A stretch of 64,000 nucleotides of DNA, taken from the NCBI GenBank assembly GCA_026874595.1, contig CM049307.1:37428862-37492861 (forward strand). The letters are read 5' to 3'. The notes below the pieces were generated by a model. That model ran no database searches. It was not told the origin of the DNA and saw nothing but the letters and a program-made list of their open reading frames with translations. Below are positions 13,160 to 56,720 of the stretch, in pieces. The translations under genes and the position numbers were made by a program. This stretch comes from Sipunculus nudus (Eukaryota > Annelida > Sipuncula > Golfingiida > Sipunculidae). Every line of letters starts with the position of its first letter. Position 1 is the stretch's first letter.

Positions 13160-13266
13160 TTAGTATATGAAAGTGTTGTTTGCTTGTTTTCTTGACCCAT
13201 GGTACAGCACTCTGTTTCCTGATGTCCTTTTGTTGTCCTCTTTCCAAGCAGGACCAACCTCATCAC
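13160..13266 (-). CDS. Exon 4, terminal coding exon of the same gene
   Basis: The acceptor is ATATCTATCTTTCAG (intron end at 13267) with a good pyrimidine tract. The exon begins with GT, which completes the Gly codon opened by the last G of exon 3 (phase 1). It reads DEVGPAWKEDNKRTSG, then NRVLYHGSRKQ, and ends NNTFIY followed by tandem TAA TAA codons at 13162-13157. That gives 34 residues after the junction glycine. The phase match and polar composition support it as the real C-terminus. An AATAAA follows 73 nt after the stop. A competing phase-compatible terminal exon exists at 15744-15659 but has a weaker acceptor. Confidence 0.6.
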
Positions 13267-16003: not shown

Positions 16004-16214
16004 CTGTAAGGACATTGTACTGCCTCCGTACTGGGCTAGACCGTGGTACCCCCGGTCCCAGGAGCACACCAAGCTTATTGTGCACTCTGTTGTACTGCGT
16101 CCAGCCGTAGTTGCTGGATAAACGTCCATCCTTGCTGGAGAGTACTGTCTTGACCCCTGAGCTGTCATTCATGTTCATCTTGTTCTCGAAGGTTGGCCAG
16201 TGTATTTTATAATA
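16004..16214 (-). CDS. Exon 3 of the same gene, next to a satellite
   Basis: A 211-nt exon (70 codons plus 1 nt), entering in phase 0 and leaving in phase 1. The acceptor is TTACCTATTTCCAG (intron end at 16215) and the donor is ACAG followed by GTAACA (intron start at 16003). The peptide runs from YYKIHWPTFENK through NYGWTQYNRVHNKL and LLGPGVPRSS to RRQYNVLT. Codon composition is clearly less AT-rich than the flanks, which supports coding. The first 20 or so bases and the acceptor are nearly identical to a segment present in every monomer of the satellite that begins immediately upstream. The exact start could therefore be debated; a later acceptor inside the exon is possible but has a poorer pyrimidine tract. 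Confidence 0.68.
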
Positions 16215-19200
16215 CTGGAAATAGGTAACATCACAGGTAAACAGTGTGGTTTATAATACTGGAAGCAGGTTAATCATCTAGATAAAGAGTGTAGTTTATA
16301 ATACTGGAAAATGGGTAAATCATAGATAAACAATGTAGTTTATAATACTGGAATATTGGTATCATAGGTAAACAGTGTAGTTTATTATTATAAAACTGGA
16401 ATCAGGTAAATCTTCTAGGTAAAGATTGTAGTTTATAATACTGAAAATGAGGAAATAATTGGTAAACAGTGTAGTTTAAAATACAGGAAAATTGGTATCA
16501 TAGGTAAACAGTGTAGTTTATTATTATAAAACTGGAATCAGGTAAATCTTCTAGGTAAAGAGTGTAGTTTATAATACTGAAAATGAGGAAATAATTGGTA
16601 AACAGTGTAGTTTAAAATACAGGAAAATTGGTATCATAGGTAAACAGTGTAGTTTATTATTATAAAACTGGAATCAGGTAAATCTTCTAGGTAAAGATTG
16701 AAGTTTATAATACTGAAAATGAGGAAATAATTGGTAAACAGTGTAGTTTAAAATACAGGAAAATTGGTATCATAGGTAAACAGTGTAGTTTATTATTATA
16801 AAACTGGAATCAGGTAAATCTTCTAGGTAAAGAGTGTAGTTTATAATACTGAAAATGAGGAAATAATTGGTAAACAGTGTAGTTTAAAATACAGGAAAAT
16901 TGGTATCATAGGTAAACAGTGTAGTTTATTATTATAAAACTGGAATCAGGTAAATCTTCTAGGTAAAGAGTGTAGTTTATAATACTGAAAATGAGGAAAT
17001 AATTGGTAAACAGTGTAGTTTAAAATACAGGAAAATTGGTATCATAGGTAAACAGTGTAGTTTATTATTATAAAACTGGAATCAGGTAAATCTTCTAGGT
17101 AAAGAGTGTAGTTTATAATACTGAAAATGAGGAAATAATTGGTAAACAGTGTAGTTTAAAATACAGGAAAATTGGTATCATAGGTAAACAGTGTAGTTTA
17201 TTATTATAAAACTGGAATCAGGTAAATCATCTAGGTAAAGATTGAAGTTTATAATACTGAAAATGAGGAAATAATTGGTAAACAGTGTAGTTTAAAATAC
17301 AGGAAAATTGGTATCATAGGTAAACAGTGTAGTTTATTATTATAAAACTGGAATCAGGTAAATCTTATAGGTAAAGAGTGTAGTTTATAATACTGAAAAT
17401 GAGGAAATAATTGGTAAACAGTGTAGTTTAAAATACAGGAAAATTGGTATCATAGGTAAACAGTGTAGTTTATTATTATAAAACTGGAATCAGGTAAATC
17501 TTCTAGGTAAAGAGTGTAGTTTATAATACTGAAAATGAGGAAATAATTGGTAAACAGTGTAGTTAAAAATACAGGAAAATCGGTATCATAGGTAAACAGT
17601 GTAGTTTATTATTATAAAACTGGAAGCAGGTAAATCTTCTAGGTAAAGAGTGTAGTTTATAATACTGAAAATGGGGAAATCATTGGTAAACAGTGTAGTT
17701 TAAAATACAGGAAAATTGGTATCATAGGTAAACAGTGTAGTTTATTATTATAAAACTGGAAGCAGGTAAATCTTCTAGGTAAAGAGTGTAGTTTATAATA
17801 CTGAAAATGAGGAAATAATTGGTAAACAGTGTAGTTTAAAATACAGGAAAATCGGTATCATAGGTAAACAGTGTAGTTTATTATTATAAAACTGGAAGCA
17901 GGTAAATCTTCTAGGTAAAGAGTGTAGTTTATAATACTGAAAATGGGGAAATCATTGGTAAACAGTGCAGTTTAAAATACAGGAAAATTGGTATCATAGG
18001 TAAACAGTGTAGTTTATTATTATAAAAATGGAATCAGGTAAATCTTCTAGGTAAAGATTGAAGTTTATAATACTGAAAATGGGGAAATAATTGGTAAACA
18101 GTGTAGTTTATAATACTGAAAAATCGGTATCATAGGTAAACAGTGTAGTTTATTATTATAAAACTGGAATCAGGTAAATCTTCTAGGTAAAGAGTGTAGT
18201 TTATTATACTGAAAATGGGGAAATCATTGGTAAACAGTGTAGTTTATAATACTGGAAAATGGGTAAATCATAGATAAACAATGTAGTTTATAATACTGGA
18301 ATATTGGTATCATAGGTAAACAGTGTAGTTTATTATTATAAAACTGGAATCAGGTAAATCTTCTAGGTAAAGAGTGTAGTTTATAATACTGTAAATGAGG
18401 AAATAATTGGTAAACAGTGTAGTTTAAAATACAGGAAAATCGGTATCATAGGTAAACAGTGTAGTTTATTATTATAAAACTGGAAGCAGGTAAATCTTCT
18501 AGGTAAAGAGTGTAGTTTATAATACTGAAAATGGGGGAAATCATTGGTAAACAGTGTAGTTTAAAATACAGGAAAATTGGTATCATAGGTAAACAGTGTA
18601 GTTTATTATTATAAAACTGGAAGCAGGTAAATCTTCTAGGTAAAGATTGAAGTTTATAATACTGAAAATGGGGAAATAATTGGTAAACAGTGTAGTTTAA
18701 AATACAGGAAAATTGGTATCATAGGTAAACAGTGTAGTTTATTATTATAAAACTGGAATCAGGTAAATCTTCTAGGTAAAGATTGAAGTTTATAATACTG
18801 AAAATGGGGAAATCATTGGTAAACAGTGTAGTTTATAATTCTGGAAAATCTGTATCATAGGTAAACAGTGTAGTTTATTATTATAAAACTGGAATCAGGT
18901 AAATCTTCTAGGTAAAGAGTGTAGTTTATAATACTGAAAATGGGGAAATCATTGGTAAACAGTGTAGTTTAAAATACAGGAAAATTGGTATCATAGGTAA
19001 ACAGTGTAGTTTATTATTATAAAACTGGAAGCAGGTAAATCTTCTAGGTAAAGATTAAAGTTTATAATACTGAAAATGGGGAAATCATTGGTAAACAGTG
19101 TAGTTTATAAAACTGGAAAATCGGTATCATAGGTAAACAGTGTAGTTTATTATTATAAAACTGGAAGCAGGTAAATCGTCTAGGTAAAGAGTGTAGTTTA

Positions 19201-22200
19201 TAATACTGAAAATGGGGAAATCATTGGTAAACAGTGTAGTTTAAAATACAGGAAAATTGGTATCATAGGTAAACAGTGTAGTTTATTATTATAAAACTGG
19301 AATCAGGTAAATCTTCTAGGTAAAGAGTGTAGTTTATAATACTGAAAATGGGGAAATCATTGGTAAACAGTGTAGTTTATAATACTCGAAAATCGGTATC
19401 ATCGGTAAACAGTGTAGTTTATTATTATTAAACTGGAATCAGGTAAATCTTCTAGGTAAAGATTGAAGTTTATAATACTGAAAATGGGGCAATCATTGGT
19501 AAACAGTGTAGTTTATAATACTGGAAAATCGGTATCATAGGTAAACAGTGTAGTTTATTATTATAAAACTGGAATCAGGTAAATCTTCTAGGTAAAGAGT
19601 GTAGTTTATAATACTGAAAATGGGGAAATCATTGGTAAACAGTCTAGTTTAAAATACAGGAAAATTGGTATCATAGGTAAACTGTGTAGTTTATTATTAT
19701 AAAACTGGAAGCAGGTAAATCTTCTAGGTAAAGATTAAAGTTAATAATACTGAAAATGGGGAAATCATTGGTAAACAGTGTAGTTTAAAATACAGGAAAA
19801 TTGGTATCATAGGTAAACTGTGTAGTTTATTATTATAAAACTGGAAGCAGGTAAATCTTCTAGGTAAAGATTGAAGTTTATAATACTGAAAATGGGGAAA
19901 TCATTGGTAAACAGTGTAGTTTATAATACTGGAAAATCGGTATCATAGGTAAACAGTGTAGTTTATTATTATAAAACTGGAAGCAGGTAAATCTTCTAGG
20001 TAAAGAGTGTAGTTTATAATACTGAAAATGAGGAAATAATTGGTAAACAGTGTAGTTTAAAATACAGGAAAATTGGTATCATAGGTAAACAGTGTAGTTT
20101 ATTATTATAAAACTGGAATCAGGTAAATCTTCTAGGTAAAGAGTGTAGTTTATAATACTGAAAATGAGGAAATAATTGGTAAACAGTGTAGTTTAAAATA
20201 CAGGAAAATTGGTATCATAGGTAAACAGTGTAGTTTATTATTATAAAACTGGAATCAGGTAAATCTTCTAGGTAAAGATTGAAGTTTATAATACTGAAAA
20301 TGGGGAAATCATTGGTAAACAGTGTAGTTTATAATTCTGGAAAATCTGTATCATAGGTAAACAGTGTAGTTTATTATTATAAAACTGGAATCAGGTAAAT
20401 CTTCTAGGTAAAGAGTGTAGTTTATAATACTGAAAATGGGGAAATCATTGGTAAACAGTGTAGTTTATAATACTGGAAAATCGGTATCATAGGTAAACAG
20501 TGAAGTTTATTATTATAAAACTGGAATCAGGTAAATCTTCTATGTAAAGATTGAAGTTTATAATACTGAAAATGGGGAAATCATTGGTAAACAGTGTAGT
20601 TTAAAATACAGGAAAATTGGTATCATAGGTAAACAGTGTAGTTTATTATTATAAAACTGGAATCAGGTAAATCTTCTAGGTAAAGAGTGTAGTTTATAAT
20701 ACTGAAAATGGGGAAATCATTGGTAAACAGTGTAGTTTATAATACTGGAAAATCGGTATCATAGGTAAACAGTGTAGTTTATTATTATTAAACTGGAATC
20801 AGGTAAATCTTCTAGGTAAAGATTGAAGTTTATAATACTGAAAATGGGGAAATCATTGGTAAACAGTGTAGTTTAAAATACAGGAAAATTGGTATCATAG
20901 GTAAACAGTGTAGTTTATTATTATAAAACTGGAATCAGGTAAATCTTCTAGGTAAAGATTGAAGTTTATAATACTGAAAATGGGGAAATCATTGGTAAAC
21001 AGTGTAGTTTAAAATACAGGAAAATTGGTATCATAGGTAAACAGTGTAGTTTATTATTATAAAACTGGAATCAGGTAAATCTTCTAGGTAAAGAGTGTAG
21101 TTTATAATACTGAAAATAGGGAAATCATTGGTAAACAGTGTAGTTTAAAATACAGGAAAATTGGTATCATAGGTAAACAGTGTAGTTTATTATTATAAAA
21201 CTGGAATCAGGTAAATCTTCTAGGTAAAGATTGAAGTTCATAATACTGAAAATGGGGAAATCATTGGTAAACAGTGTAGTTTAAAATACAGGAAAATTGG
21301 TATCATAGGTAAACAGTGTAGTTTATTATTATAAAACTGGAATCAGGTAAATCTTCTAGGTAAAGAGTGTAGTTTATAATACTGAAAATGGGGAAATCAT
21401 TGGTAAACAGTGTAGTTTATAATACTGGAAAATCGGTATCATAGGTAAACAGTGTAGTTTAATATTATAAAACTGGAATCAGGTAAATCTTCTAGGTAAA
21501 GATTGAAGTTTATAATACTGAAAATGGGGAAATCATTGGTAAACAGTGTAGTTTAAAATACAGGAAAATTGGTATCATAGGAAAACTGTGTAGTTTATTA
21601 TTATAAAACTGGAATCAGGTAAATCTTCTAGGTAAAGATTGAAGTTTATAATACTGAAAATGGGGAAATCATTGGTAAACAGTGTAGTTTAAAATACAGG
21701 AAAATTGGTATCATAGGTAAACAGTGTAGTTTATTATTATAAAACTGGAATCAGGTAAATCTTCTAGGTAAAGAGTGTAGTTTATAATACTGAAAATGGA
21801 GGAATCATTGGTAAACAGTGTAGTTTAAAATACAGGAAAATTGGTATCATAGGTAAACAGTGTAGTTTATTATTATAAAACTGGAATCAGGTAAATCTTC
21901 TAGGTAAAGAGTGTAGTTTATAATACTGAAAATGGGGAAATCATTGGTAAACAGTGTAGTTTATAATACTGGAAAAATAATACTGGAAAATCGGTATCAT
22001 AGGTAAACAGTGTAGTTTATTATTATTAAACAGGAATCAGGTAAATCTTCTAGGTAAAGATTGAAGTTTATAATACTGAAAATGGGGAAATCATTGGTAA
22101 ACAGTGTAGTTTATAATACTGGAAAATCGGTATCATAGGTAAACAGTGTAGTTTATTATTATAAAACTGGAAGCAGGTAAATCTTCTAGGTAAAGAGTGT

Positions 22201-24560
22201 AGTTTATAATACTGAAAATGGGGAAATCATTGGTAAACAGTGTAGTTTAAAATACAGGAAAATTGGTATCATAGGTAAACAGTGTAGTTTATTATTATAA
22301 AACTGGAATCAGGTAAATCTTCTAGGTAAAGAGTGTAGTTTATAATACTGAAAATGGGGAAATCATTGGTAAACAGTGTAGTTTATAATACTGGAAAATC
22401 GGTATCATAGGTAAACAGTGTAGTTTATTATTATAAAACTGGAATCAGGTAAATATTCTAGGTAAAGATTGAAGTTTATAATACTGAAAATGGGGAAATC
22501 ATTGGTAAACAGTGTAGTTTAAAATACAGGAAAATTGGTATCATAGGTAAACAGTGTAGTTTATTATTATAAAACTGGAATCAGGTAAATCTTCTAGGTA
22601 AAGATTGAAGTTTATAATACTGAAAATGGGAAAATCATTGGTAAACAGTGTAGTTTAAAATACAGGAAAATTGGTATCATAGGTAAACAGTGTAGTTTAT
22701 TATTATAAAACTGGAAGCAGGTAAATCTTCTAGGTAAAGATTGAAGTTTATGAAACTGAAAATGGGGAAATCATTGGTAAACAGTGTAGTTTAAAATACA
22801 GGAAAATTGGTATCATAGGTAAACAGTGTAGTTTATTATTATAAAACTGGAATCAGGTAAATCTTCTAGGTAAAGAGTGTAGTTTATAATACTGAAAATG
22901 GGGAAATCATTGGTAAACAGTGTAGTTTATAATACTGGAAAAATAATACTGGAAAATCGGTATCATAGGTAAACAGTGTAGTTTATTATTATTAAACAGG
23001 AATCAGGTAAATCTTCTAGGTAAAGATTGAAGTTTATAATACTGAAAATGGGGAAATCATTGGTAAACAGTGTAGTAAATAATACTGGAAAATCGGTATC
23101 ATAGGTAAACAGTGTAGTTTATTATTATTAAACAGGAATCAGGTAAATCTTCTAGGTAAAGATTGAAGTTTATAATACTGAAAATGGGGAAATCATTGGT
23201 AAACAGTGTAGTTTAAAATACAGGAAAATTGGTATCATAGGTAAACTGTGTAGTGTATTATTATAAAACTGGAAGCAGGTAAATCTTCTAGGTAAAGATT
23301 GAAGTTTATAATACTGAAAATGGGGAAATCATTGGTAAACAGTGTAGTTAAAAATACAGGAAAATTGGTATCATAGGTAAACTGTGTAGTTTATTATTAT
23401 AAAACTGGAAGCAGGTAAATCTTCTAGGTAAAGATTGAAGTTTATAATACTGAAAATGGGGAAATCATTGGTAAACAGTGTAGTTTATAATACTGGAAAA
23501 TCGGTATCATAGGTAAACAGTGTAGTTTATTATTATAAAACTGGAAGCAGGTAAATCTTCTAGGTAAAGAGTGTAGTTTATAATACTGAAAATGGGGAAA
23601 TCATTGGTAAACAGTGTAGTTTAAAATACAGGAAAATTGGTATCATAGGTAAACAGTGTAGTTTATTATTATAAAACTGGAATCAGGTAAATCTTCTAGG
23701 TAAAGAGTGTAGTTTATAATACTGAAAATGGGGAAATAATTGGTAAACAGTGTAGTTTATAATACTGGAAAATCGGTATCATAGGTAAACAGTGTAGTTT
23801 ATTATTATAAAACTGGAATCAGGTAAATCTTCTAGGTAAAGATTGAAGTTTATAATACTGAAAATGGGGAAATCATTGGTAAACAGTGTAGTTTAAAATA
23901 CAGGAAAATTGGTATCATAGGTAAACAGTGTAGTTTATTATTATAAAACTGGAAGCAGGTAAATCTTCTAGGTAAAGATTGAAGTTTATAATACTGAAAA
24001 TGGGGAAATCATTGGTAAACAGTGTAGTTTATAATACAGGAAAATTGGTATCATAGGTAAACAGTGTAGTTTATTATTATAAAACTGGAAGCAGGAAAAT
24101 CTTCTAGGTAAAGATTGAAGTTTATAATACTGAAAATGGGGAAATCATTGGTAAACAGTGTAGTTTAAAATACAGGAAAATTGGTATCATAGGTAAACAG
24201 TGTAATTTATTATTATAAAACTGGAAGCAGGTAAATCTTCTAGGTAAAGAGTGTTGTTTAAAATACTGGAAAATGGGGAAATCATTGGTAAACAGTGTAG
24301 TTTATAATACAGGAAAATTGGTATCATAGGTAAACAGTGTAGTTTATTATTATAAAACTGGAATCAGGTAAATCTTCTAGGTAAAGATTGAAGTTTATAA
24401 TACTGAAAATGGGGAAATCATTGGTAAACAGAGTAGTTTAAAATACAGGAAAATTGGTATCATAGGTAAACAGTGTAGTTTATTATTATAAAACTGGAAG
24501 CAGGTAAATCTTCTAGGTAAAGAGTGTTGTTTAAAATACTGGAAAATGGGAATTCATAGG
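16215..24560. repeat. 136-bp satellite filling intron 2
   Basis: About 61 head-to-tail monomers of about 136 bp. Each monomer is made of three related subunits of about 45 bp centred on TAAACAGTGTAGTTTA, itself an inverted repeat (TAAAC/GTTTA). Two monomer flavours dominate: one with GAGGAAATAATTGG (most of 16.4-17.6 kb, again near 20.0-20.2 kb) and one with GGGGAAATCATTGG (most of the rest). The edges are more divergent, as usual for array borders. On the minus (gene-sense) strand each subunit reads like the acceptor and first bases of exon 3. No long open frame is present on either strand. Confidence 0.95.
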
Positions 24561-25690
24561 TAAAGAATGTAGTTTTTTATACTAGGGAAGGGGGACATCA
24601 TCAGTATACACCTGGATAAAGATTTCCAGTACTGTAAACTGCATGGAATGGATATACCAAATATTTTGAAGAAAATTGTGAAGTATGTAGTGACAAATGA
24701 CTATTTACTGATACACACATTAATGTCTACAAGCGTTTTTCTTCAGTTTTAGATGCACTTTTTAGGCAATGGATGGTTTGATGATTTCTTTTTATTAATA
24801 TTGCAATTAATCTGTCGACATCATCTGCGGTTTTCCCTATAAAACACAAAGTTAATACCAAAAGAAGAATTAGTTCTCAACAAAAACAGTTGAGTGGTGT
24901 TCAATAATTTGGCTAAAGTTCAGGAACTGTGATACATAATCATTCAATAACTCAACAAATTTCTTTAAGAAAATCTCAAATTAAATAGGTCAGTACTTTA
25001 GGTTTTCCAGTCTTTGTAAAATTCATTCACTTTTTTCAATCTTAAAGATACGTTAAGACAGTAACAGAGATGACAATCAGCCAATGGCAGTGCAGATTTA
25101 GAGACATTTGGTGGAGGGTCATGCAGTTAGTTCTCCTTAGTGCATCCTCCCCTTGCCATGAAGTGCAACACAGGTGTAAAGCAGATTTTTTTATACATAT
25201 TCATTTAGTCCCAGATGATCCTGCTTGTGTTTGAAATTAACCATCTGCAAACAATGCTTTATGGCCCCACTTGCTGTTTATAATTCCCAGCTGGAACACT
25301 TTGAAAACCCCTAAGCATTACATCAGGCAAATATCAAGGCACGTCAGTAACTATAGAGTAAGTCATTGAGGTACTGAACGTTGCCGACCGGCCTGAATCT
25401 GGGTGTGTACAACAAGTGTTCCTGTACATAAAAAACTGACTTCTTACTACAATCATTAGTAAACAATCCCCTGGTACTTAATTAGCCTCAGTGAGCATGC
25501 TGGCTACACCTGGAGCACACGTAGAGATTATTTACTCAGGACTTATAAACATTTGTAAATAAGCCATATTACTAGAGTGATTATACACAGAGATAGGTAA
25601 CATATACAGTATATAGCAACTCAGCTGGTGAATGAACAAGAATTTTTAATCTGTACAATCTCTCAAGAATAAACAGGAACTATGAGCCAC
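24561..25690. other. Intron 2 unique sequence
   Basis: No exon or repeat family recognised between the satellite and the next duplication. Confidence 0.5.
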
Positions 25691-25699
25691 ATGGTGTAA

Positions 25700-26015
25700 A
25701 AAAACCCTTGTTATTTAAGAAAAATAAGAATTTTAATTTCCTCTTAGGAAATAAAGGAATTTGAGGCACCTTTAGAAAGTGCAAGTCATCTGTTTCTTAA
25801 AGAGAATTAAGATTTAACAGATATATAGTATATCAAGGAAAGCAGGTACTCCAAGCTAGTGTACAAAACAAGGCCTTCCTCTTCCAGGAAACATAAGAAT
25901 TTTCATTCCCTCTAAAGGAAATATAGGAATTTGAGGCTCCTTTAGAATGTAAGAGTTATCTCTCTCTCAAGGCGGATTCAGATTTCCAAAATATACAGTA
26001 GTATATTAAGCCAAC
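25700..26015. repeat. Diverged tandem duplication of about 187 bp
   Basis: Two diverged copies share AATAAGAATTTT-, GGAATTTGAGGC(A/T)CC- and TATACAGTAG-like blocks at about 187-bp spacing. Confidence 0.6.
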
Positions 26016-26053
26016 CTCAGGACAATCATTTAATTTTTGTTTTCATACAAATT

Positions 26054-29000
26054 AACAAGTGACCCATGGGTCATGACGCTCAGCTGACTAAGAAGAGATT
26101 CACACAAAGAATTTTACCATCTGAATGCCACATTTTGCTAGTGGTATCCTCATTCAACTGTAGCAATTAAAGTTCATCAAAATCGACAAGAAAAAAAAAT
26201 TTCATGATAATATGTCCAGCCATTCCCATGAAATCTAGCCTTTTTGTATGCAGTCAGCTGACTTATAGGACCATGCACATTTTTTAAGGACATCCCTGGA
26301 TTTTATGACAGAAGATTCTATGTCAAAAAGTTGTACCATGTCTGACTGTCTATGTGCTTAAAATGTTTTTGGCCAGTAATATAGGTCACAATGACCTTAT
26401 TTCAGGTTTCCATGGATATTGCCCAAAAGTTCCCTGTATATTACATTGGAACATTCTAGGGAAAGCAGATACAATTTGTGCTCATCTGATTTTCAGGATG
26501 CTAAAAATCCTGTCTTTGGCCAAAAGTTACATGTATATTTAATATAAGTTACCATGACATAATTTCAGGTTTCAATGCAGATTTAGAGAAGATTTTAGGG
26601 CTAGCAGATACAATTTGTGCTCTGTCTGACGGACTAGGTGCTTAAAATAATGTTTTCAGCCTGTAGTTTACAAACAAGTGACCCAGGGGTCATGAGGCTC
26701 AGCTGACCAGGAAGACATTGACAAAAGTAATTTTATCATCTGAATGTCAAATTTGAATGAAATACTTTTTCCAAACTTGACCTTTTGCATCAAAATCATC
26801 CAATATTCATTGGAGTACTATGGAGCTCTGTAGCATGAAGGATATGGGTAACAGACACCTATTTTCAAGGTTTACAAGATGACTTTTCAGGGGTCTCCCA
26901 GCATGTCAAAAAATAAAATTCTAGGTCCAGTTATTATGATTTGTGCCCTGTTAACAAATCCAAATGTTTATTCTGGGGGGTATTTCAAAGCCGCATAGGA
27001 TGAAGGATATGGGTAACAGAGATGTAATTTCAGGTGCACAAGGAGAGGGGGCCTCCCAGCATATCAAGAAAGGAGATTCTAGGTCAAGTCATTATAATTT
27101 GTGCTCTGTTAACAGATGACCAAATCTTTATTCTGGGGAGTACTTCGGAGCCCCAGAGCATGAAGGATATGGGTAACAGGGACCTTATTTCGGGTTTCCA
27201 TGTAGACCTTTTATGGGCTTCTCTGGAGGTGAGGACAGAAGATTCTAGGTCCAGTCATTATGATTTGTGCCCTGTTAATATATGACCAAATCTTTATTCT
27301 GGGGGGTACTTCAGAGCCCCATAGCTCACAGAATATGGGAAACAGGGACCTTATTTCGGGTTTCCATGTAGACCTTTTATGGGCTTCCCTGGAGGTGAGG
27401 ACAGAAGATTCTAGGTCCAGTCATTATGATTTGTGCCCTGTTTACAGATGACCAAATGTTTAAAGATCACAAAAGTAGAGAAAAAAAATCGTAAAAAATA
27501 AAAAAAATATAGGTGGCGCCACCAATCTCCAGAAATTGATGAAACACTCCATGATCAATATCCATGCAAAGAATCATGGTGATTAATGCATTAGTTGTTC
27601 AGATACTTGAGCTTTTTTATTAAATTTTGCATTATTCTGGGGGGTACTTCAGAACCCCATAGCTCAAAGAATATAGGTCACAGTGACCTAATTTCAGGTT
27701 TACAAGGAGAATTTCCATAGACCTCCCAGGATTTCAAGTAAGAAGATTCCCGGTCTAGCAGTTACGATTTGTGCCCTGTTAACAGACAGACGCCTGGATG
27801 GCCGGACTGACGACGGACAAAAGGTGATCCCTACAGCTCAGATGACTTTCAGTCAGCTGAGCTAAAAATTGAAAAAATACAGGTGGCGCCACCAGAATGC
27901 AGAAACTGATGAAACATTTCATGATCAATATCCATGCAAAGAATCATGGTGATCAATATAATAATTGTTCAGATACTTGAGCTTTTGTATCAAATTTTCC
28001 ATTATTCTGGGGGGTACTTCGGAGCCCCATAGCTCAGAGGTTATGGGTAACCGAGACCTAATTTCTAGTTTTTAAGGAAACTTTTCATGGGCCTCTCAGC
28101 ATGTCAAGAGAGAAGATTCTAGGTCCAGTTGTTACGATTTGTGCCATGTTAACAGATGACCACATCTTATGAGGTCTCAAAAATAGAGAAAAAAATTCGT
28201 AAAAATAAAAAAAAATACAGGTGGCGCCACCATACTGCAGAAACTGATGACACATTCCATGATCAATATCGATGCAAAAAAATCATGGTGATCACTGCAA
28301 TTGTTGTTTAGATACTTGAGCTTTTGTATCAAATTGTCCATTATTCTGAGGGATATTTCAGATGACTTACAGTCAGCTGAGCTAAAAACACTTAATGGTC
28401 AATATCCATGCAAAGAATCATGATGATCTCTGTATTAGTTGTTCAGATACTTCAGCTTTTGTATCAAATTGTCCATTATTCTGAGGGATACTTCAGAGTC
28501 CTATAGCTTGAAGGATATGGGTAACAGAGACCTAATTTCAAGTTTCCACAGGCACTCTTCATGGGCCTCCTTGCATGACAAGAATGAAGTTTCTAGGTCC
28601 AGTTGTTGCAATTTGTACCCTCTTGATAGATAACATAGGTGGAGCCACCAGTCTGCAGGAACTGATGGAACATCTCATAATCAATATGTATGCAAAAAAT
28701 CATGACCATCAGTGATGTAGTTATTGAGATATTGAAGTTTTTGTATGAAATTTTTGACTACTCTGGAGGGGTACTTTGGGGCCCCATAGCTCGAAGAATA
28801 TGGGTAACAGAGACCTAATTTTGGTTTCCATGGAGACTTTTCATAGGTCTCTCAGTGTGTCGAGAATGAAGATTCTAGGTCCAGTTGTTATGATTTGTGC
28901 CACGTTAACAGATGACAGCATCCTTAAAGGTCTCAAAAATAGAGGAAAAAATCATAAAAAATAAAACAATACAGGTGGCGCCACAAGTCTGCAGGAACTG

Positions 29001-30356
29001 ATGGAACATTTCATAATCAATATGTATGCCAAAAATCATGACCATCAGTGATGTAGTTATTGAGATATTGAAGTTTTTGTATGAAATTTTTTACTACTCT
29101 GGGGGGGGGGGTACTTTTGGGCCCCATAGCTCGAAGGATATGGTTAACAGAGACCTAATTTCTGGTTTCCAAGGATATTTTTCATGGACCTCTCAGTGTG
29201 TCAAGAATGAAGGTTCTAGGTCCAGTCGTTACAATTTGTGCCATGCTAACAGATGACAGCATCCTTAAAGGTCTCAAAAATAGAGGAAAAAATCATAAAA
29301 AAAAACAATAAAGGTGGCACCACCAGTCTGCAGGAAGTGATGACACAACTCATGATCAATAGTTATGCCACAAATCATGACCATCAGTGATGTAGTTATT
29401 GAGATATTGAAGTTTTTGTTTGAAATTTTTTACTTTTCTTGGGTGTACTTTGGGGCTCCATAGCTCGAAGAATATGGGTAACAGAGACCTAATTTCTGGT
29501 TTCCATGGAGACTTTTCATAGGTCTCTCAGTGTGTCAAGAATGAAGATTCTAGGTCCAGTCTTTACGATTTGTGCCTTGTTAACAGATGTTTACATTTTG
29601 AAAGGTCTCAAAAATAGAGAAAAAAATTCGTTAAAAATTGAACGATACAGGTGGTGCCACCAGTCTGCAGGAAGTGATGGAACATCTCATGATCAATATG
29701 TATGACAAAAATCATGACCATCAGTCAAGTATTTAATGAGATATTGAAGTTTTTGTTTGAAATTTTTTACTTTTCTGGGGGGTAGTTTGGGGCCCCATAG
29801 CTGGAAGGATATGGGTAACAGAGACCTAATTTCTGGTTTCCATGGAGACTTTTCATAGGTCTCTCAGTGTGTTGAGAATGAAGATTCTAAGTCCAGTTAT
29901 TAAGATTTGTGTCTTGTTAACAGATGTTCACATTTTTAAAGGTCTCAAAAATAGAGAAAAAAATTCGTAAAAAATTGAAAAAATACAGGTGGCGCCACCA
30001 GTCTTCAGGAACTGATGGAACCTCTCATGATCAATATGTATGCCAAAAATCATGACCATCAGTCAAGTAGTTATTGAGATATTGAAGTTTTTGTATGAAA
30101 TTTTTGACTACTCTGGGGGGGGGGGTACTTTGGGGCCCCATAGCTCGAAGGATATGGGTAACAGAGACCTAATTTCTGGTTTCCAAGGAGATTTTTCATG
30201 GACCTCCCAGGATGTCAAGTAAGAAGATTCCAGTTCTAGCGGTTACGATTTGTGCCTGGTTAACGGACAGACAGACGGACAGACAGACAGACAGACGGAC
30301 GACGGACAAAGAGTGATCGCTATAGCTCAGATGACTTTCAGTCAGCTGAGCTAAAA
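26054..30356. mobile_element. Composite non-autonomous element
   Basis: It opens AACAAGTGACCCATGGGTCA, then GCTCAGCTGAC (26078-26088). It closes with GTCAGCTGAGC (30341-30351) then TAAAAA. The two 11-mers are exact inverted repeats. A second copy of the left end lies at about 26673. Extra copies of the right end lie near 27838-27865 and 28360-28385, so the block is a chain or nest of related elements. The interior is built of modules of about 337 bp. The right end has GACAGACGGACAGACAG-type repeats. No transposase or reverse transcriptase frame is visible. A second copy with the same termini is at 62607-63846. Confidence 0.75.
26950..30130. repeat. Modules of about 337 bp with GGTGGCGCCACC
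   Basis: About eight to nine modules in the composite element. Typical landmarks in order are GGGGTACTT, CCCATAGCTCGAAGGATATG, GATTCTAGGTCCAGT, CTCAAAAATAGAG, ACAGGTGGCGCCACCAG, CATGATCAATAT and GAGATATTGAAGTTTTTGT. The palindrome recurs near 27512, 27885, 28220, 28641, 28975, 29310, 29650 and 29988. It is intact in some modules and decayed in others (GGTGGAGCCACC, GGTGGCACCACC, GGTGGTGCCACC). Confidence 0.85.
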
Positions 30357-30603
30357 ATCCTGTACAGTTAATGGTTTACTATTAATTTTCAAGTTAATGT
30401 TCCTAACTAAATAACATGTACGAAAGAGAGTGATAAATTATAAATTTGCAATTATAGTAATAGACTTCTACCAAATTGGACTAAGTTATGAAATAATAAA
30501 ACCTTGTCCCTCCTGAATATATCAGGATATAAGTTTTTGTCTGTCCCAGGAAGAATAGAAATTAGTTCTTGAATGCCCCTGATGCTGTGAATCATGTACT
30601 CAC

Positions 30604-30753
30604 CGGTTGCGTATCCTTTTCGTGGAAGTTACTTTTATAGAGCGGTAACCAGGGGGTGGAATACTGGCCACCTAGTGAGAACTGTGAAGTGTGTTGTGAC
30701 GGGAATGGGATGGGCCTCTCAGCGGGTGCTAAGGTTTTGCTTCCTCCAAAATT
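30604..30753 (-). CDS. Exon 2 of the same gene
   Basis: A 150-nt exon of exactly 50 codons, phase 0 at both ends. The acceptor is canonical (CTGTTACTTTTCAG, intron end at 30754) and the donor is near-consensus (CCG then GTGAGT, intron start at 30603). The peptide starts NFGGSKTLAPAERP and ends YKSNFHEKDTQP, rich in Pro, Ser and aromatic residues with no recognised domain. Its phase fits exon 1 (ending ...AAG ATG) and exon 3 without any stop. It is the best-defined exon of the gene because both splice sites are strong. It sits just upstream, in the sense of transcription, of the repeat-filled intron 2. Confidence 0.7.
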
Positions 30754-39759: not shown

Positions 39760-41080
39760 GAACATTTGAGGAGTGTGATGGTGTAATGGTTCGGCCACTG
39801 CACATGTGACCATAAGGTTGTGAGTTTACATCAGGTTTGGGTGCCTGCCTCACTGAAACTCCTGTGTTAATTCACATCAGGTTTGGGTGCCTGCCTCACT
39901 GAGACTCATGTGTTACTGCATCACTGAAACTCCTGTGTTAACTAATTAGTTCACATCGGGTTTGGTGCCTGCCTCACTGAGACTCCTGTGTTAGTTCACA
40001 TCAGGTTTGGGTGCCTGCCTCACTGAGACTCCTGTGTTAGTTCACATCAGGTTTGGGTGCCTGCCTCACTGAGACTCCTGCGTTAGTTCACATCAGGTTT
40101 GGGTGCCTGCCTTACTGAGACTCCTGTGTAAGTTCACATCAGGTTTTGGTGCCTGCCTAACTGAGACTCCTGTGTTAGTTCACATCAGGTTTGGGTGCCT
40201 GCCTCACTGAGACTCCTGTGTTAGTTCTCATTGGGTTTGGGTGCCTGCCTCACTGAGACTCCTGTGTTAGTTCGCATTTGGTTTTGGTGCCTGCCTCACT
40301 GAGACTCCTGTGTTAGTTCACATCGGGTTTGGGTGCCTGCCTCACTGAGACTCATGTGTTAGTTCACATCGGGTTTGGGTGCCTGCCTCACTTAGACTCA
40401 TGTGTTAGTTCACATCGGGTTTGGGTGCCTGCCTCACTGAGACTCCTGTGTTAGTTCTCATTGGGTTTGGGTGCCTGCCTCACTGAGACTCCTGTGTTAG
40501 TTCACATCAGGTTTGGGTGCCTGCCTCACTGAGACTCCTGCGTTAGTTCGTATCAGGTTTGGGTGCCTGCCTCACTGAGACTCCTGTGTTAGTTCTCATT
40601 TGGTTTGGGTGCCTGCCTCACTGAGACTCCTGTGTTAGTTTGCATTTGGTTTTGGTGCCTGCCTCACTGAGCCTCCTTTGTTAGTTCACATCAGGTTTGG
40701 GTGCCTGCGTCACTGAGACTCCTGTGTTAGTTCTCATTGGGTTTGGGTGCCTGCCTCACTGAGACTCCTGTGTTAGTTTGCATTGGGTTTGGGTGCCTGC
40801 ATCACTGAGACTCCTGTGTTAGTTCTCATTGGGTTTGGGTGCCTGCCTCACTGAGACTCCTGTGTTAGTTTGCATTGGGTTTGGGTGCCTGCCTCACTGA
40901 GACTCCTGTGTTAGTTCGCATTTGGTTTGGGTGCCTGCCTCACTGAGACTCCTGTGTTAGTTTACATTGGGTTTGGTTGCCTGCCTCACTGAGATCCCTA
41001 ATCAAAGTCTTCTCCACCAGGGCATGCCCTGTGATGGACATAGGCAAATGTAGAAGAAATAAACCTCTATCACGCACTGG
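39760..41080 (+). mobile_element. tRNA-like SINE with expanded internal VNTR
   Basis: The head matches a pol III A box exactly (TGGTGTAATGG, 39779-39789). A degenerate B box (AGTTTACATCA, 39823-39833) follows about 44 bp later. Between head and tail lies an array of about 25 units of 45 bp (39834-40990; core GGTTTGGGTGCCTGCCTCAC). The array is followed by a single-copy tail containing CCAGGGCATGCCCTGTGATG and ending near AAATAAACC. The head and tail look like ordinary tRNA-derived SINE ends. The SINE call rests on the promoter boxes only. Confidence 0.6.
39834..40990. repeat. 45-bp VNTR, about 25 copies
   Basis: The unit is approximately TCACATCAGG + TTTGGGTGCCTGCCTCACTG + AGACTCCTGTGTTAGT. 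Variant motifs CATCAGG, CATCGGG, CATTGGG and CATTTGG mark sub-families along the array. Confidence 0.95.
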
Positions 41081-46985: not shown

Positions 46986-47249
46986 CATCTTTGAGGATGT
47001 GGTGTAATCAGTGTGTGGCTGTGTCCGGATGGTGAATGTACTTCTGTGGTTGGCTCTGCTCCCTTTAGTGAACGGCAGAGGTTTAGAGACACAACGTGAT
47101 TTATATGGCTCATCTGTAATGATAGTGACGAAGTCCCCTTGATCAGCCAGGATGGTGGTGGCAGTTTTACCTTGGCCATGCCGTACGCTGCTGACTGGTT
47201 TTGCCAGTACGGAACAGTCGTAGTCTATCGGACTCTTCGCGGCTAACAT
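46986..47249 (-). CDS. Exon 1 of a four-exon gene, function unknown
   Basis: First coding exon of the only gene I can support here; I do not recognise its family. Translation starts at the ATG at 47249, the first Met after an in-frame TAA at 47273-47271. It runs 88 codons and ends ...TTSSKM at a GTAAGA donor (46985-46980), phase 0. The segment is soluble, basic and Ser/Thr-rich, with no signal peptide or membrane helix. The surrounding DNA is richer in CG than its neighbours, as expected at an animal promoter. With exons 2-4 the product would be about 243 residues (88+50+70+1+34). An X-box-like motif lies 54 bp upstream. Short, domain-free, Pro/Tyr/Arg-rich proteins of this kind are common among axonemal proteins, so a ciliary protein is one possibility, but that is inference. 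Further phase 0/0 exons in the 16.2-kb intron 1 cannot be excluded. Confidence 0.6.
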
Positions 47250-50640: not shown

Positions 50641-52140
50641 AGTACTGACAAACAAACTAGACCTGTCTAGCTGTAAAACTCGCCGAGTTATCAGCATTTC
50701 CCTGAAATCTCGTGTTTTCTCGTGTGACCAGATACGGTGCGAGATTGTGCCTTACTTGCAGTTTTGTCCTGTCAAGCTGGCCATGTGGAACGAAATGCCG
50801 AAAACTAGACCTGTCTAGCTGCAGTTTCGTGAAATCTGGTGTTATCTCGTTTGACGAGATATGGTGTGAGATTTTGCCAGGCTTGCATATCTGTCGTGTT
50901 AAGGTGGTCTAGTGGAACCAAATGCCGAAAACCAGACGTGTCTATCTGTAAAACTGGCCGAGTTATAAGCATTTTGGTGAAATCTCGTGTTTTCTCGTTT
51001 GACGAGATACGGTGCGACATTCGGCCTGACTTTCAGTTCTATCATGTCCAGCAGGTCATGTGAAACAAAATCCCGAAAACGAGACCTGTCTAGCTGTAAA
51101 ACTCGCCGAGTTATAAGCATTTCCGTGAAATCTCGTTTTTTCTCGTTTGACGAGATGGGGTGCGAGAGTTGGCCTGACTTGCAGTTCTGTCGTGTCAAGC
51201 TGGTCATGTGGAAGAAAATGCCGAAAACTAGATCTGCCTAGCTGTAAAACTGGCCGAGTTATAAGCATTTCCGTGAAATCCCATGTTTTCTCATTTGACG
51301 AGATACGGTGCGAGATTTGGCCTGTCTTGCAGCTCTGTCGTGTCAAGCTGGTCATGTGGAAGAAAATGCCGAAAACTAGATCTGCCTAGCTGTAAAACTG
51401 GCCGAGTTATAAGCATTTCCGTGAAATCCCATGTTTTCTCGTTTGACGAGATACGGTGCGAGATTTGGCCTGATTTGCAGATCTGTCGTGTCAAGCTTGT
51501 TTGGTGGAACGAAATGCCGAAAACCAGACCTGTCTAGCTGTAAAAGTCGCCGAGTTATAAGCATTTCCGCGAAGTCTCGTTTTTTCTCGTTTGCCGAGAT
51601 ATGGCGCGAGATTTGGCGTGACTTTCAGTTCTGTCGTGTCAAGCTGGTCATGTGGAACAAGATGCCGAAAACTAGATCTGCCTAGCTTAAAAACTGACAA
51701 AGTTACAAAAAATGGTCGTGTTATTTCCAATTTCCATGATTTTTGCCCAAAAAATGTAACCATGGTAACGGCACTTGCATATCTGTCGTGTCAAGCTGGT
51801 CTAGTGGAACTAAATGCCGAAAACCAGACGTGTCTAGCTGTAAAACTGGCCCAGTTATAAGCATTTCCGTGAAATCTCGTGTTTTCTCGTTTGACGAGAT
51901 ACGGTGCGAGATTTGGTCTGACTTGCAACTCTGTCGTGTCAAGCTTGTTTGGTGGAACGAAATGCCGAAAACCAGACCTGTCTAGCTGTAAAAGTCGCCG
52001 AGTTATAAGCATTTCCGCGAAGTCTCGTTTTTTCTCGTTTGACGAGATATGGCACGAGATTTGGCGTGACTTTCAGTTCTGTCGTGTCAAGCTGGTCATG
52101 TGGAACAAAATGCCGAAAACTAGATCTGCCTAGCTTAAAA
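50640..52140. repeat. 148-bp satellite, block 1
   Basis: Monomers at exact 148-bp spacing (the GACGAG core falls at 51001, 51149, 51297 and 51445). They share GAGTTATAAGCATTTCCGTG, TTCTCGTTTGACGAGATACG, GCGAGATTTGGCCTGACTTG and CTGTCGTGTCAAGCTGGTCA. It is CG-rich for this genome. Each monomer has the hairpin TCTCGT-TTG-ACGAGA. From about 51590 the monomers are arranged in a 448-bp higher-order unit. The short frames on both strands are by-products. Confidence 0.95.
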
Positions 52141-52500
52141 ACTGACAAAGTTACAAAAAATGGTCGTGTTATTTCCAATTTCCGTGAATTTTGCCCAAAA
52201 ATTGTAACCATGGTAACGGCAAATTTAAGTAAGCTACATATCAAAAGAAAGGCCAGGTGATGACGAAAATAAATGAGCTATTGCAGAAGTGGATAAGCCT
52301 ATTTATGGCGAAGTTATAGTGCAAAAACCGTTAACCATACCTGTCGTGACCTTGACCCTTGACCTTGGAGCAATGTTGACCAAAAACAATAGGGCACCTA
52401 GAAATCGGTTTGTCAATCAAGCCTGTAAGTTTCAAGTTGATTGATGCAAAAGTGTGACCTGGAGAGTCGTGACAAACAAACAAACAAACAAACAAACAAA
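52141..52500 (+). repeat. Conserved tail module ending in (CAAA)n, copy 1
   Basis: Contains ATGGTCGTGTTATTTCC, GTAACCATGGTAAC (52204-52217), AGTAAGCTACAT, GTCGTGACCTTGACCCTTGA, CAATAGGGCACCTAGAAATC and CTGGAGAGTCGTGACAAACA. Near-identical copies are at 54290-54650, 58390-58720, 60070-60445 and 61440-61798. Confidence 0.9.
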
Positions 52501-54290
52501 CAAGATGACCAGAGGTCACGCGCTTGCCGGAAATGGAAATGATAGAGACAGATAGACAGAGAGTGCATGAAGAAACAGTCATATGAATGAGCAACATTGT
52601 GGGGGCAGCAGAAACGGATAATATGTTTATTTATGCATGCTGACCTTTAACAGCTGCATATCTTTCTAGTGTAAAAGGGACCAAGTTCAAAATTTTTTCA
52701 TGAAATCCCGTTAATCTCGTTTGACAAGAAGCAGTGACACGTTTTCAGGTTTGTCATGTCAAGCTGGCCAAATGATATGAAATGCCGAAAACTAGACCTG
52801 TCTAGCTATAAAAGCCGCTGAGTTATAAGCATTTGCATGAAATCTCGTGTTTTCTCGTTTGACGGGAAATGGTGCGAGCTTGTGCCTGACTTGGAGTTCT
52901 GTCATGTCAAGCGGGTCATGTGGAACTAAATGCCGAAAACTAGACCTGTCTAGCTGCAGTTCCGTGAAATCTCGTGTTTTCTCGTTTGACGGGATACGGT
53001 GCGAGATTTTGCCTGACATGCATGTCTGTCGTGTCAAGCTGGTCTAGTGGAACAAAATGCCGAAAACCAGACGTGTCTATCTGTAACACTCGCCGAGTTA
53101 TAACCAATGCCGTGAAATCTCATGTTTTCTCGTTTGACGAGATACGGTGCGACATTCGGCCTGACTTTCAGTTCTGTCATGTCCAGCAGGACATGTCAAA
53201 CAAAATGCCGAAAACTAGACCTGTCCAGCTGTAAAACTCGCCGAGTTATAAGCATTTCCGTGAAATCTCGTGTTTTCTCGTTTGACGAGATAGGGTGCGA
53301 GATTTGGCCTGACTTGTACATCTATCGTGTCAAGCTGGTCATGTGGAAGGAAATGCCGGAAACCAGACCTGTCTAGCTGTAAAACTGGCCGAGTTATAAG
53401 CATTTCCGTGAAATTTCGTGTTTTCTCGTTTGACCAGATATGGCGCGAGATTTTGCCAGACTTGCATATCTGTCGTGTCAAGCTGGTCTAGTGGAACTAA
53501 ATGCCGAAAACCAGACGTGTCTAGCTGTAAAACTGGCCCAGTTATAAGCATTTCCGTGAAATCCCGTGTTTTCTCGTTTGACGAGATACGGTGCGAGATT
53601 TGGCCTGTCTTGCAGCTCTGTCGTATCAAGCTTGTTTGGTGGAACGAAATGCCGATAACCAGACCTGTCTAGCTGTAAAAGTCGCCGAGTTATAAGCATT
53701 TCCGCGAAGTCTCGTTTTTTCTCGTTTGACGAGATATGGCGCGAGATTTGGCGTGACTTTCAGTTCTGTCGTGTCAAGCTGGTCATGTGGAACAAAATGC
53801 CGAAAACTAGATCTGCCTAGCTTAAAAACTGACAAAGTTACAAAAAATGGTCGTGTTATTTCCAATTTCCATGATTTTTGCCCAAAAAATGTAACCATGG
53901 TAACGGCACTTGCATATCTGTCGTGTCAAGCTGGTCTAGAGGAACTAAATGCCGAAAACCAGACGTGTCTAGCTGTAAAACTGGCCCAGTTATAAGCATT
54001 TCCGTGAAATCCCGTGTTTTCTCGTTTGACGAGATACGGTGCGAGATTTGGCCTGTCTTGCAGCTCTGTCGTGTCAAGCTTGTTTGGTGGAACGAAATGC
54101 CGAAAACCAGACCTGTCTAGCTGTTAAAGTCGCCGAGTTATAAGCATTTCCGCGAAGTCTCGTTTTTTCTCGTTTGACGAGATATGGCGCGAGATTTGGC
54201 GTGACTTTCAGTTCTGTCGTGTCAAGCTGGTTATGTGGAACAAAATGCCGAAAACTAGATCTGCCTAGCTTAAAAACTGACAAAGTTACA
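52500..54290. repeat. Left-end module plus 148-bp satellite, block 2
   Basis: It begins with AAGATGACCAGAGGTCACGC and a spacer module containing TTTATTTATGCATGCTGACC. About ten 148-bp monomers follow from about 52790. The last part carries two 448-bp higher-order units (equivalent points 53726 and 54174). The spacer module recurs at about 56840. Confidence 0.92.
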
Positions 54291-54650
54291 AAAAATGGTC
54301 GTGTTATTTCCAATTTCCATGATTTTTACCCCAAAAAATGTAACCATGGTAACGGCAAATTTAAGTAAGCTACATGTCAAAAGAAAGGCCAGGTGATGAC
54401 GAAAAAAATGAGCTATTGCAGAAGTGGATAAGCCTATTTATGGCGAAGTTATAGTGCAAAAACCGTTAACCATACCTGTCGTGACCTTGACCCTTGACCT
54501 TGGAGCAATGTTGACCAAAAACAATAGGGCACCTAGAAATCGGTTTGTCAATCAAGCTTGTAAGTTTCAAGTTGATTGATGCAAAAGTGTGACCTGGAGA
54601 GTCGTGACAAACAAACAAACAAACAAACAAACAAACAAACAAACAAACAA
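54290..54650 (+). repeat. Tail module copy 2 with (CAAA)n
   Basis: Same landmarks as copy 1; X-box-like motif at 54340-54353. It ends in about 11 CAAA units, then CTAGACGACCATAGGTCGAA, the left end of the next module. Confidence 0.9.
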
Positions 54651-56600
54651 ACTAGACGACCATAGGTCGAATGCTTGCCGGAAATCGGAAGTGAAACACA
54701 GACGGACAGACAGAACATATTGTCAGTTTTCTATTAATGGAATGACTCTCAGGGACATTGCTGAGAATATGTGGCCCGTAGAATGACATATGAGACAAAA
54801 GAACAGGCAAGCAGACAAAGCTGACAACAAAAGACGAACAGACAGACATACTGACTTTGTGAGACAAGATTGACACCAGATGACATAACCTGGTGATTGA
54901 GAAGATTGAAAGGAAGAAAATGAGTAATAATTTATGTAATTTAGATTTATAATTTTGGAGGTATGGCGAATTAATGATATACTAGGGAGGCTCGACTGTA
55001 GCGCCCTCTAGCAGACATATTCCGAAGACGACAAATGCGTTTCGTATTATTAGTGTAAACCATGAGATGTCCCAGTTTCAAAAGGATTCCGTCAAAGCTG
55101 TGGCCTGTAGAATGCTATATGTAAGGCGTAAGAACCAGCAAGCAGGCGACTTTGAGGATAACGGACAAACAGATGGACACACTGACAAAGTGACAGAAGA
55201 TTGAAACCAGATGCCTTAATCAGGTTATGGAGAAGACTCAAAGGAAGAAAATAAGCTATAGTTTATGTAACTGAGGCTTTGGGTGTAGAGATAGGGTCAA
55301 TACAATGGTATGTGTGTGAGGGTCGTGTGCAGCGCCCACTAGTGGCCATATCCGGAAAATGAAAAATTTATTTCTAGATATTAGTGTAAGACATAAGATG
55401 TAATAGTTTCAAAAGGATTCTGTCAAAACTGTGGCCTACAGAATGCTATATGTGAGACGCAAGAGCCAACAAGCAGGCGAATTTGAGGACAACTGACAAA
55501 CAGATGAAAACACTGACAAAGTGACTCAAAATTGAGTCCAGATGACTACTCCAGGTTATGGAGAAGACTCAAAGGAAGAAAAAAGCTACAGTTTATGTAA
55601 CTGAGGTTTATAGTTTTGGAGATATTGCCAAAGCATGATATGTTGGGAGAGGTCCGAGTTCAGCGCCCCCTAGCGGCCATATCCGAAAAATGAAAAATTG
55701 GTTTCGAGATATTAGTGTAAGACTTAAGATGTAATAGTTTCAAAAGGATTCTTTCAAAACTGTGCCCTTTAGAATGCTATATGTGAGACGCAAGAGCAAG
55801 CAGGTGAATTTGAGGACAACTGACAAACAGACAGACACACTGACAAAGTGTCACAAAATTGTGACCAGATGACTACACTAGGTTATTGAGAAAACTCAGA
55901 GGAAGAAAATAAGCTATAGTTTATGTAATTGAGGCTTATAATTTTGGAGATATGGCCCAAATATGATATGTTCGGGAGGTTTGCATCCAGCGCCCCCTAG
56001 CGGCCCTATTCAAAAAATGAAAAAACGATTTCGAGATACTAGTGTAGGACTTATAATATGTCAGTTTCAGAAAGATTCCTGCAATAATGTGGCCTTTGGC
56101 GCAAGATGAATGAAATCTCAAAATATCTCTATTCACGTGATATTTTACGAGATACTGCAATACTTGTTATAAAATCTTGTAGTACTAGTTCAATGCTACC
56201 TGATGCAAAAAACTAGATTACACTAGCTTTAAAACTGACAAAGTTAGAAAAATAAGACCCCTTATATTCGAATATCATGACTTTTCCCCCAAAATTTGTA
56301 ACCATGGTTACGGCAAATTTGAGTCAGCTACACACCAGATGACAGGCCTTGGAATGACGATTAAAATGAGCTATTGTTGAAGTAGATACGACTAATAGTC
56401 ACAAAGATATGAAGAAAAAACCGTTTTGAGAATTTTTGACGACCTTGACCTTGACCTTTGACCTATTTTAACCAAAAACAATAGGGCACCTAGAAATTTA
56501 ATTCTCCATCATCTCTGAAAGTTTTAAGGTGATTGTGGCAAAATTGTGGCCAGGAGAGTGCAGACAAACAAACAGACAGACAGACAAACAGACATACGCA
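54651..56600. repeat. 310-bp module array plus diverged tail
   Basis: About four copies of a 310-330 bp unit. Landmarks are CAGCGCCCCCTAGCGGCCAT, TTTCGAGATATTAGTGTAAG, TTTCAAAAGGATTC, GTGGCCTGTAGAATGCTATA and GGAAGAAAATAAGCTA. A degenerate 148-bp monomer (about 56090-56230) follows, then a diverged tail module. That tail carries a perfect palindrome GTAACCATGGTTAC (56298-56311) and TGACCTTTGACCT (56452-56464). Confidence 0.85.
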
Positions 56601-56720
56601 ACTGAGCAATATGCTTGCCGAAATCTTTGATTCCGGCAAGCAACAAACAGACAAAGAGACAAACAGACATACGCAACTGACGAACATGCTTGCCGAAATC
56701 GAAGATTTCCGGCAAGCAAC
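56600..56720. repeat. Tandem hairpin units with TGCTTGCCG stems
   Basis: Two units of ATACGCAACTGA...CATGCTTGCCG + AAATC + loop + GATTTCCGGCAAGCA + ACAAACAGAC. The stem is about 15 bp. The same unit occurs twice more at 60465-60575. Confidence 0.85.

What the first reader, a model, noticed from the sequence alone, without database searches (positions are those of the whole stretch)
16004..24560. Satellite apparently amplified from the gene's own 3' splice site
On the gene-sense strand the exon-3 border reads TTCCAG|TATTATAAAATACACTG. The adjoining 136-bp satellite repeatedly reads TTCCAG or TTTCAG followed by TATTATAAACTACACTG, in the same orientation, up to three times per monomer. Intron 2 thus appears to hold well over 100 acceptor-like sites directly upstream of the true one. 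Either the splice region seeded the array, or the exon start was taken from the array. Such a structure could delay splicing, cause recursive or slippery acceptor choice, or yield repeat-containing transcripts.
Basis: partly seen in the sequence, partly recalled or inferred. Interest (0 to 1): 0.75.

Follow-up and report, generated by a model that had tools for sequence, protein, structure and literature searches.

The report
Satellite repeats carrying copied splice site
In one animal gene, a short stretch covering the end of an intron and the first 17 bases of the next exon recurs about 180 times just upstream, so the real splice site sits at the end of a long row of near-copies; similar but much shorter structures are known from lancelets as "mirages".

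Summary
Exon 3 (minus strand, 16004-16214) begins TTTCCAG|TATTATAAAATACACTGG, and 16 of its first 17 bases match the adjoining array. The array (16198 to about 24575) has about 184 sub-units, nearly all 42-48 bp, in a 136-bp three-unit higher-order repeat, in gene-sense orientation. Upstream of the true acceptor lie 138 TTYCAG sites; splicing exon 2 to any of them meets a stop codon.

A pattern search of the whole genome (1.43 Gb) found 88 copies of the unit core: 87 here, one in a C7 minisatellite; the reversed control gave 2. The gene is single-copy.

[quoted passage not shown] passages). This looks like a giant mirage, probably outside cephalochordates. Seeding from the acceptor is favoured (about 0.65) over the exon having borrowed the array edge; no orthologue or RNA was available to decide. 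Recursive splicing is not supported: one AGGT on the sense strand.

The parts
46986..47249 (-). coding exon 1 (ATG; 88 codons; donor GATG|gtaaga)
   Evidence: open frame with donor; protein hit at C2:37475847-37476110
30604..30753 (-). coding exon 2 (TTTTCAG|AATTTT ... CAACCG|gtgagt, ends on a codon boundary)
   Evidence: rough acceptor score 8.11
16215..30603 (-). intron 2, 14,389 bp, about 58% of it satellite
   Evidence: coordinates; share by arithmetic
16004..16214 (-). coding exon 3 (TTTCCAG|TATTATAAAATACACTGG ... TTACAG|gtaaca)
   Evidence: rough acceptor score 5.93, 90.9th percentile of the window's minus-strand AGs
13160..13266 (-). coding exon 4 with stop TAA
   Evidence: rough acceptor score 8.15
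16198..16214 (-). exonic end of the array: first 17 bases of exon 3, 16 of 17 identical to an array 17-mer
16215..16353 (-). three plain 44-45-bp edge units (16221-16353) without the derived changes of the higher-order repeat, then the true TTCCAG acceptor
16354..24575 (-). 136-bp higher-order repeat array; A, B and C sub-units, nearly all 42-48 bp
18249..18368 (-). internal 120-bp copy identical to 16301-16420, suggesting insertion of about 1.95 kb of array beside the exon
24576..24660 (-). possible decayed repeat units at the far edge (weak: 8 of 1,733 random windows score at least as high)

Best explanation
A 'mirage'-type minisatellite of extreme size. A segment of about 44 bp straddling the 3' splice site of exon 3 (about 27 intronic and 17 exonic bases) was tandemly duplicated. 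The copies diverged into a three-unit set, and that 136-bp trimer was amplified inside intron 2 to about 8.4 kb, while selection on the gene kept the outermost copy as the true acceptor and exon start. In the transcript the array is most likely removed whole with intron 2: the exon-proximal acceptor is chosen by exon definition and the decoys are mostly ignored. Occasional use of an upstream copy gives a premature stop, and so presumably decay of the mRNA. Shown: anatomy, homology across the border, orientation, rarity elsewhere in the genome, coding consequence of each TTYCAG decoy. Inferred: direction of origin, selection, splicing behaviour.
For: The exon start matches the array at 16 of 17 bases, against a best of 14 in 1,500 random 17-mers. 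The unit core with up to 2 mismatches occurs 87 times here and once elsewhere in 1.43 Gb, with a reversed-pattern control of 2, so the array looks locally made rather than brought in. The units beside the exon lack the derived changes of the higher-order repeat (B: TTCCTG; C: extra bases). By a rough recalled acceptor matrix the true acceptor scores 5.93 (90.9th percentile), while the one AG within the first 30 exon bases (16184) scores 0.93 (50.3rd), so I see no obvious older acceptor just downstream. A TTTACC that could serve as branch point lies 22-25 nt before 79 of the 139 TTYCAG sites, the true one (24 nt) included; before 57 the nearest is only 12-13 nt away, and the remaining 3 are further (recounted, whose printed distances are one short for the array sites). 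Array growth beside the exon left the edge units in place. Lancelet genes have the same kind of structure with normal mRNA (passages of PMC3087553, PMC3902484).
Against: No orthologue or paralogue shows that the exon began with this sequence before the array existed (no spliced retrocopy). The seemingly decayed units lie at the far edge, which also fits an array that began deeper in the intron and grew towards the exon. An array edge lying near some splice boundary in this window is not wildly improbable: about 4% by simple arithmetic (5 arrays of 4 or more copies of 25 bp or more, 6 boundaries, 40-base tolerance, 64 kb). Units are no better than ordinary decoys one by one: by the same matrix the true acceptor is weaker than those of exons 2 and 4, and 34 of 299 AGs of intron 2 outside the array also reach its score. 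No RNA supports the gene model; the protein has no Pfam or PDB relative.
Confidence: 0.6

Rival explanations
1. The exon start was taken from the array: an intronic minisatellite grew up to exon 3 and its last unit supplied a new acceptor and the first 17 bases (nearly six codons) of the exon.
For: Array units score as fair acceptors (56 TTTCAG|TATTA sites average 6.56, above the true site's 5.93). An in-frame AG 30 bases into the exon could have been the older start. Far-edge units may be older.
Against: That older AG scores only 0.93; the plain units sit at the exon side; it needs the independent coincidence of an array arriving exactly at an acceptor.
Confidence: 0.25
2. A member of a dispersed minisatellite or transposon-carried satellite family that happened to lie here.
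For: A 37-bp minisatellite on C7 (L041:3535-6270, 74 copies) shares a similar 21-bp core (16 of 21 by eye), and BLAST aligns one variant stretch of it with the array at 74% over 70 bp (E 1.4e-4 within that 10-kb stretch) and 92% over 25 bp. Bivalve satellites are often carried by mobile elements (titles and abstract openings; that this animal is a bivalve is only my guess).
Against: Only 1 of 88 genome matches lies outside the array, within the control level of 2; the 301-bp repeat query gave 29 matches, all at this locus, but the tool scored one candidate region only and warns that repeats are undercounted.
Confidence: 0.1
3. The array is a working splicing regulator: its many acceptor modules delay splicing or divert transcripts into decay.
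For: 138 TTYCAG decoys, each leading to a stop; 67 of 269 array AGs score at least as high as the true one.
Against: No sign of upkeep: 41 of 59 B units have lost the AG; no ratchet sites (1 AGGT); no RNA structure signal in the two monomers folded (z -0.99); lancelet mirages reported as harmless to splicing.
Confidence: 0.1

Closest known systems
Amphioxus 'mirages' (Adh3, globins BflGb6 and BflGb9, troponin C; imperfect ones in PGBD5)
   Same: Minisatellite-like tandem duplication of an intron-exon boundary; many units carry the splice signal; in BflGb6 likewise the 3' end of an intron plus the 5' part of the exon; cluster edges escape homogenisation (passages of PMC3087553 and PMC3902484)
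   Different: Here about 184 sub-units in 8.4 kb against 6 and 3 units in the two BflGb6 haplotypes; a three-unit higher-order repeat; genome of 1.43 Gb with apparently 17 large contigs, which does not fit a lancelet (about 0.5 Gb, recalled)
Human IFI6 (6-16) minisatellite providing multiple splice donor sites (Turri et al. 1995)
   Same: A minisatellite that repeats a splice site at an exon edge
   Different: Repeats a donor rather than an acceptor, and two downstream copies are used in mRNA (seen only as a citing sentence and reference in PMC4526556; the paper itself is not held; that it is far smaller is recalled)
Variable internal tandem repeats at exon-intron boundaries of human segmental duplications (PMC2812944)
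   Same: Minisatellite expansion at exon-intron boundaries that may create new introns (passages)
   Different: On average 30-bp units repeated four times, in recent paralogues; no long homogenised array

Membership tests
mirage (tandem duplication of an intron-exon boundary) | repeat unit spans the boundary, with intronic and exonic parts | tested here: met
   16 of 17 exonic bases plus the preceding intronic unit match the array; that exon 3 starts here is predicted, not shown by RNA
mirage (tandem duplication of an intron-exon boundary) | minisatellite-sized tandem units (10-160 bp in the amphioxus cases of PMC3087553) | tested here: met
   sub-units nearly all 42-48 bp, 136-bp higher-order repeat
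mirage (tandem duplication of an intron-exon boundary) | many, not all, units keep the AG or GT signal | tested here: met
   A 61 of 61 (partly circular), C 56 of 60, B 18 of 59
mirage (tandem duplication of an intron-exon boundary) | inner units homogenised, edge units excluded | tested here: met
   adjacent 136-mers differ by 4.7 positions on average (46 pairs of equal length); the three gene-side edge units differ from the A, B and C consensus by 7-20 positions
mirage (tandem duplication of an intron-exon boundary) | normal splicing undisturbed; length instability between alleles | not testable with these tools
   no RNA; no second copy of the locus in the assembly
recursive splicing ratchet sites | AG|GT joined sites on the sense strand (definition recalled) | tested here: not met
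   1 AGGT in the sense strand of 16198-24640, 0 AGGTAA
dispersed or TE-carried satellite | copies at many genomic loci | tested here: not met
   1 of 88 matches elsewhere, control 2; a more degenerate core search did not complete

The most novel reading that the evidence does not exclude
A complete satellite-like array with higher-order repeat structure, born from a gene's own splice acceptor and coding exon start and still attached to its source: a mirage well outside cephalochordates, with about thirty times the units of the larger globin haplotype read here, showing that splice sites can seed satellites and giving a natural test of how the spliceosome picks one acceptor among about 139.
Probability: 0.55. 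Interest if true: 0.7.

Novelty: new variant of a known kind. Interest (0 to 1): 0.5.

Why it matters
Satellites usually have no visible source (general knowledge). Here the probable source is still joined to the array and presumably under coding constraint, which makes the origin of a satellite directly testable by comparing orthologues. The locus is also a natural experiment in acceptor choice: about 139 TTYCAG sites in one intron, of which only the last avoids a premature stop. In the listings of the searches made I met mirages by that name only in lancelets, and a related human case (PMC2812944); if this one is confirmed, they may be a more general route by which introns grow and new introns or satellites arise.

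Tried and rejected
Recursive splicing: rejected for lack of AGGT sites on the sense strand. RNA structure hiding the decoys: two monomers fold no better than shuffles (z -0.99, 33 of 200 shuffles as stable). Spliced retrocopy as proof of the exon 2-3 junction: none found at up to 3 mismatches. Paralogue as proof of an older exon start: none (next hit E 8.6). Identity of the protein: no hit in Pfam or PDB sequences, none by the peptide-pattern scans of IMG/VR or GTDB contigs (19 stretches matched a pattern, none confirmed). A link to the C7 minisatellite (L041): similar core, but as far as I could read by eye its array does not abut an exon at either edge. Rfam at gathering scores and tRNA: nothing. 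Pfam on ten long open frames of the window: three hits, all below the curated cut-off. The 179 AGGTAA on the antisense strand were noted and not pursued. Exon 3 as a DNA query against the genome did not complete.

The acceptor matrix uses recalled, human-like frequencies and is only a ranking aid. The unit classification is crude; B counts differ (59 against 62). The sub-unit total of 184 includes the exon copy and comes from motif-based cutting; two sub-units are 56 bp.
Full report
Gene. The predicted gene lies on the minus strand with four coding exons: 46986-47249, 30604-30753, 16004-16214 and 13160-13266. Together they encode 243 aa, with GT/AG intron ends and intron phases 0, 0, 1. The protein search of the window's own genome returns these four places and then only one hit at E 8.6, so it looks single-copy. 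It has no relative in Pfam or PDB sequences nor by the IMG/VR or GTDB scans. The genome is 1.43 Gb in 153 contigs. I saw the lengths of 22 contigs (20, C2, C7): the 13 seen among C1-C17 are 61-111 Mb, the 9 seen from C18 on are under 110 kb, so apparently 17 chromosomes.

Array. Intron 2 (16215-30603) holds a tandem array at 16198-24575 (with the edge). It splits into about 184 sub-units that form a 136-bp repeat of A, B and C units. Adjacent 136-mers differ by 4.7 positions on average over the 46 pairs of equal length. Next to the exon stand three plain 44-45-bp units (starting at 16353, 16309 and 16264) and then the exon copy itself. They lack the B change (TTCCTG) and the C insertion. A 120-bp block at this edge (16301-16420) recurs identically at 18249-18368, so about 1.95 kb of array was probably inserted beside the exon after the edge units had diverged. 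Beyond 24575 decayed units may continue (8 of 1,733 random windows score at least as high).

Border. The first 17 bases of exon 3 match an array 17-mer at 16 of 17; the best of 1,500 random 17-mers outside the array is 14, and the other two exon starts reach 10. The intron side continues as a full unit. So the repeat crosses the predicted intron-exon boundary.

Genome-wide. The 23-base core with up to 2 mismatches occurs 88 times in 1.43 Gb, all on one strand. By position 87 are in this array (one search gives the same 87 with up to 2 mismatches) and one is on C7; the reversed pattern gives 2. The C7 match is one variant unit of a separate 37-bp, 74-copy minisatellite that aligns with the array at 74% over 70 bp. 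The 301-bp repeat query gave 29 matches, all here, with the tool's warning that repeats are undercounted.

Splicing. There are 139 TTYCAG sites including the true one. With a rough recalled matrix, 67 of 269 array AGs score at least as high as the true acceptor, and 34 of the 299 other AGs of intron 2 do too. So the array is not alone in offering decoys, but it concentrates them. All 138 upstream TTYCAG choices meet a stop codon before the end of exon 3. The sense strand has 1 AGGT and the antisense strand 179 AGGTAA. The RNA fold of two monomers is ordinary (z -0.99). I see no sign of selection for or against the decoys: A and C units mostly keep the AG, 41 of 59 B units lost it, as homogenisation of a few founder units would produce.

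Known kind. Searches for the same elsewhere (listings only) gave the lancelet papers and human variable repeats at exon boundaries (PMC2812944, passages); the IFI6 donor minisatellite is cited in PMC4526556 (passages).

Judgement. Origin from the splice site is the better reading because the array is private to this locus at the stringency tested, its plain units sit at the exon, and I see no good alternative acceptor at the start of the exon. It is not proven: no orthologue was available, and the possible far-edge decay allows growth in the other direction. Function is most likely none beyond a splicing burden that the gene tolerates.

Noticed in passing
16198-24640, plus strand: The antisense strand of the array carries 179 AGGTAA donor-like sites (20 in the other 55.6 kb of the plus strand), so an antisense transcript would meet a row of 5' splice-site-like motifs.
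   Followed up: no
L041:3535-6270 (own genome C7:46045534-46048269): A 37-bp minisatellite of 74 copies, possibly intronic (by eye, near a possible coiled-coil exon), whose core (CCAGTATCATAATCCTGACTG) resembles the unit core of this array at 16 of 21 positions.
   Followed up: partly
50703-60133: At least two arrays of a 148-bp satellite with a 448-bp higher-order period.
   Followed up: no
39946-40994: A 46-bp minisatellite of 22.8 copies in intron 1 of the same gene.
   Followed up: no
21988 and 22954 (window, minus strand): Two B units share the same 14-bp internal duplication (TTCCAGTATTATTT before TTCCAGTATTATAAAC), so 150-bp monomers recur as a marked variant 966 bp apart.
   Followed up: no
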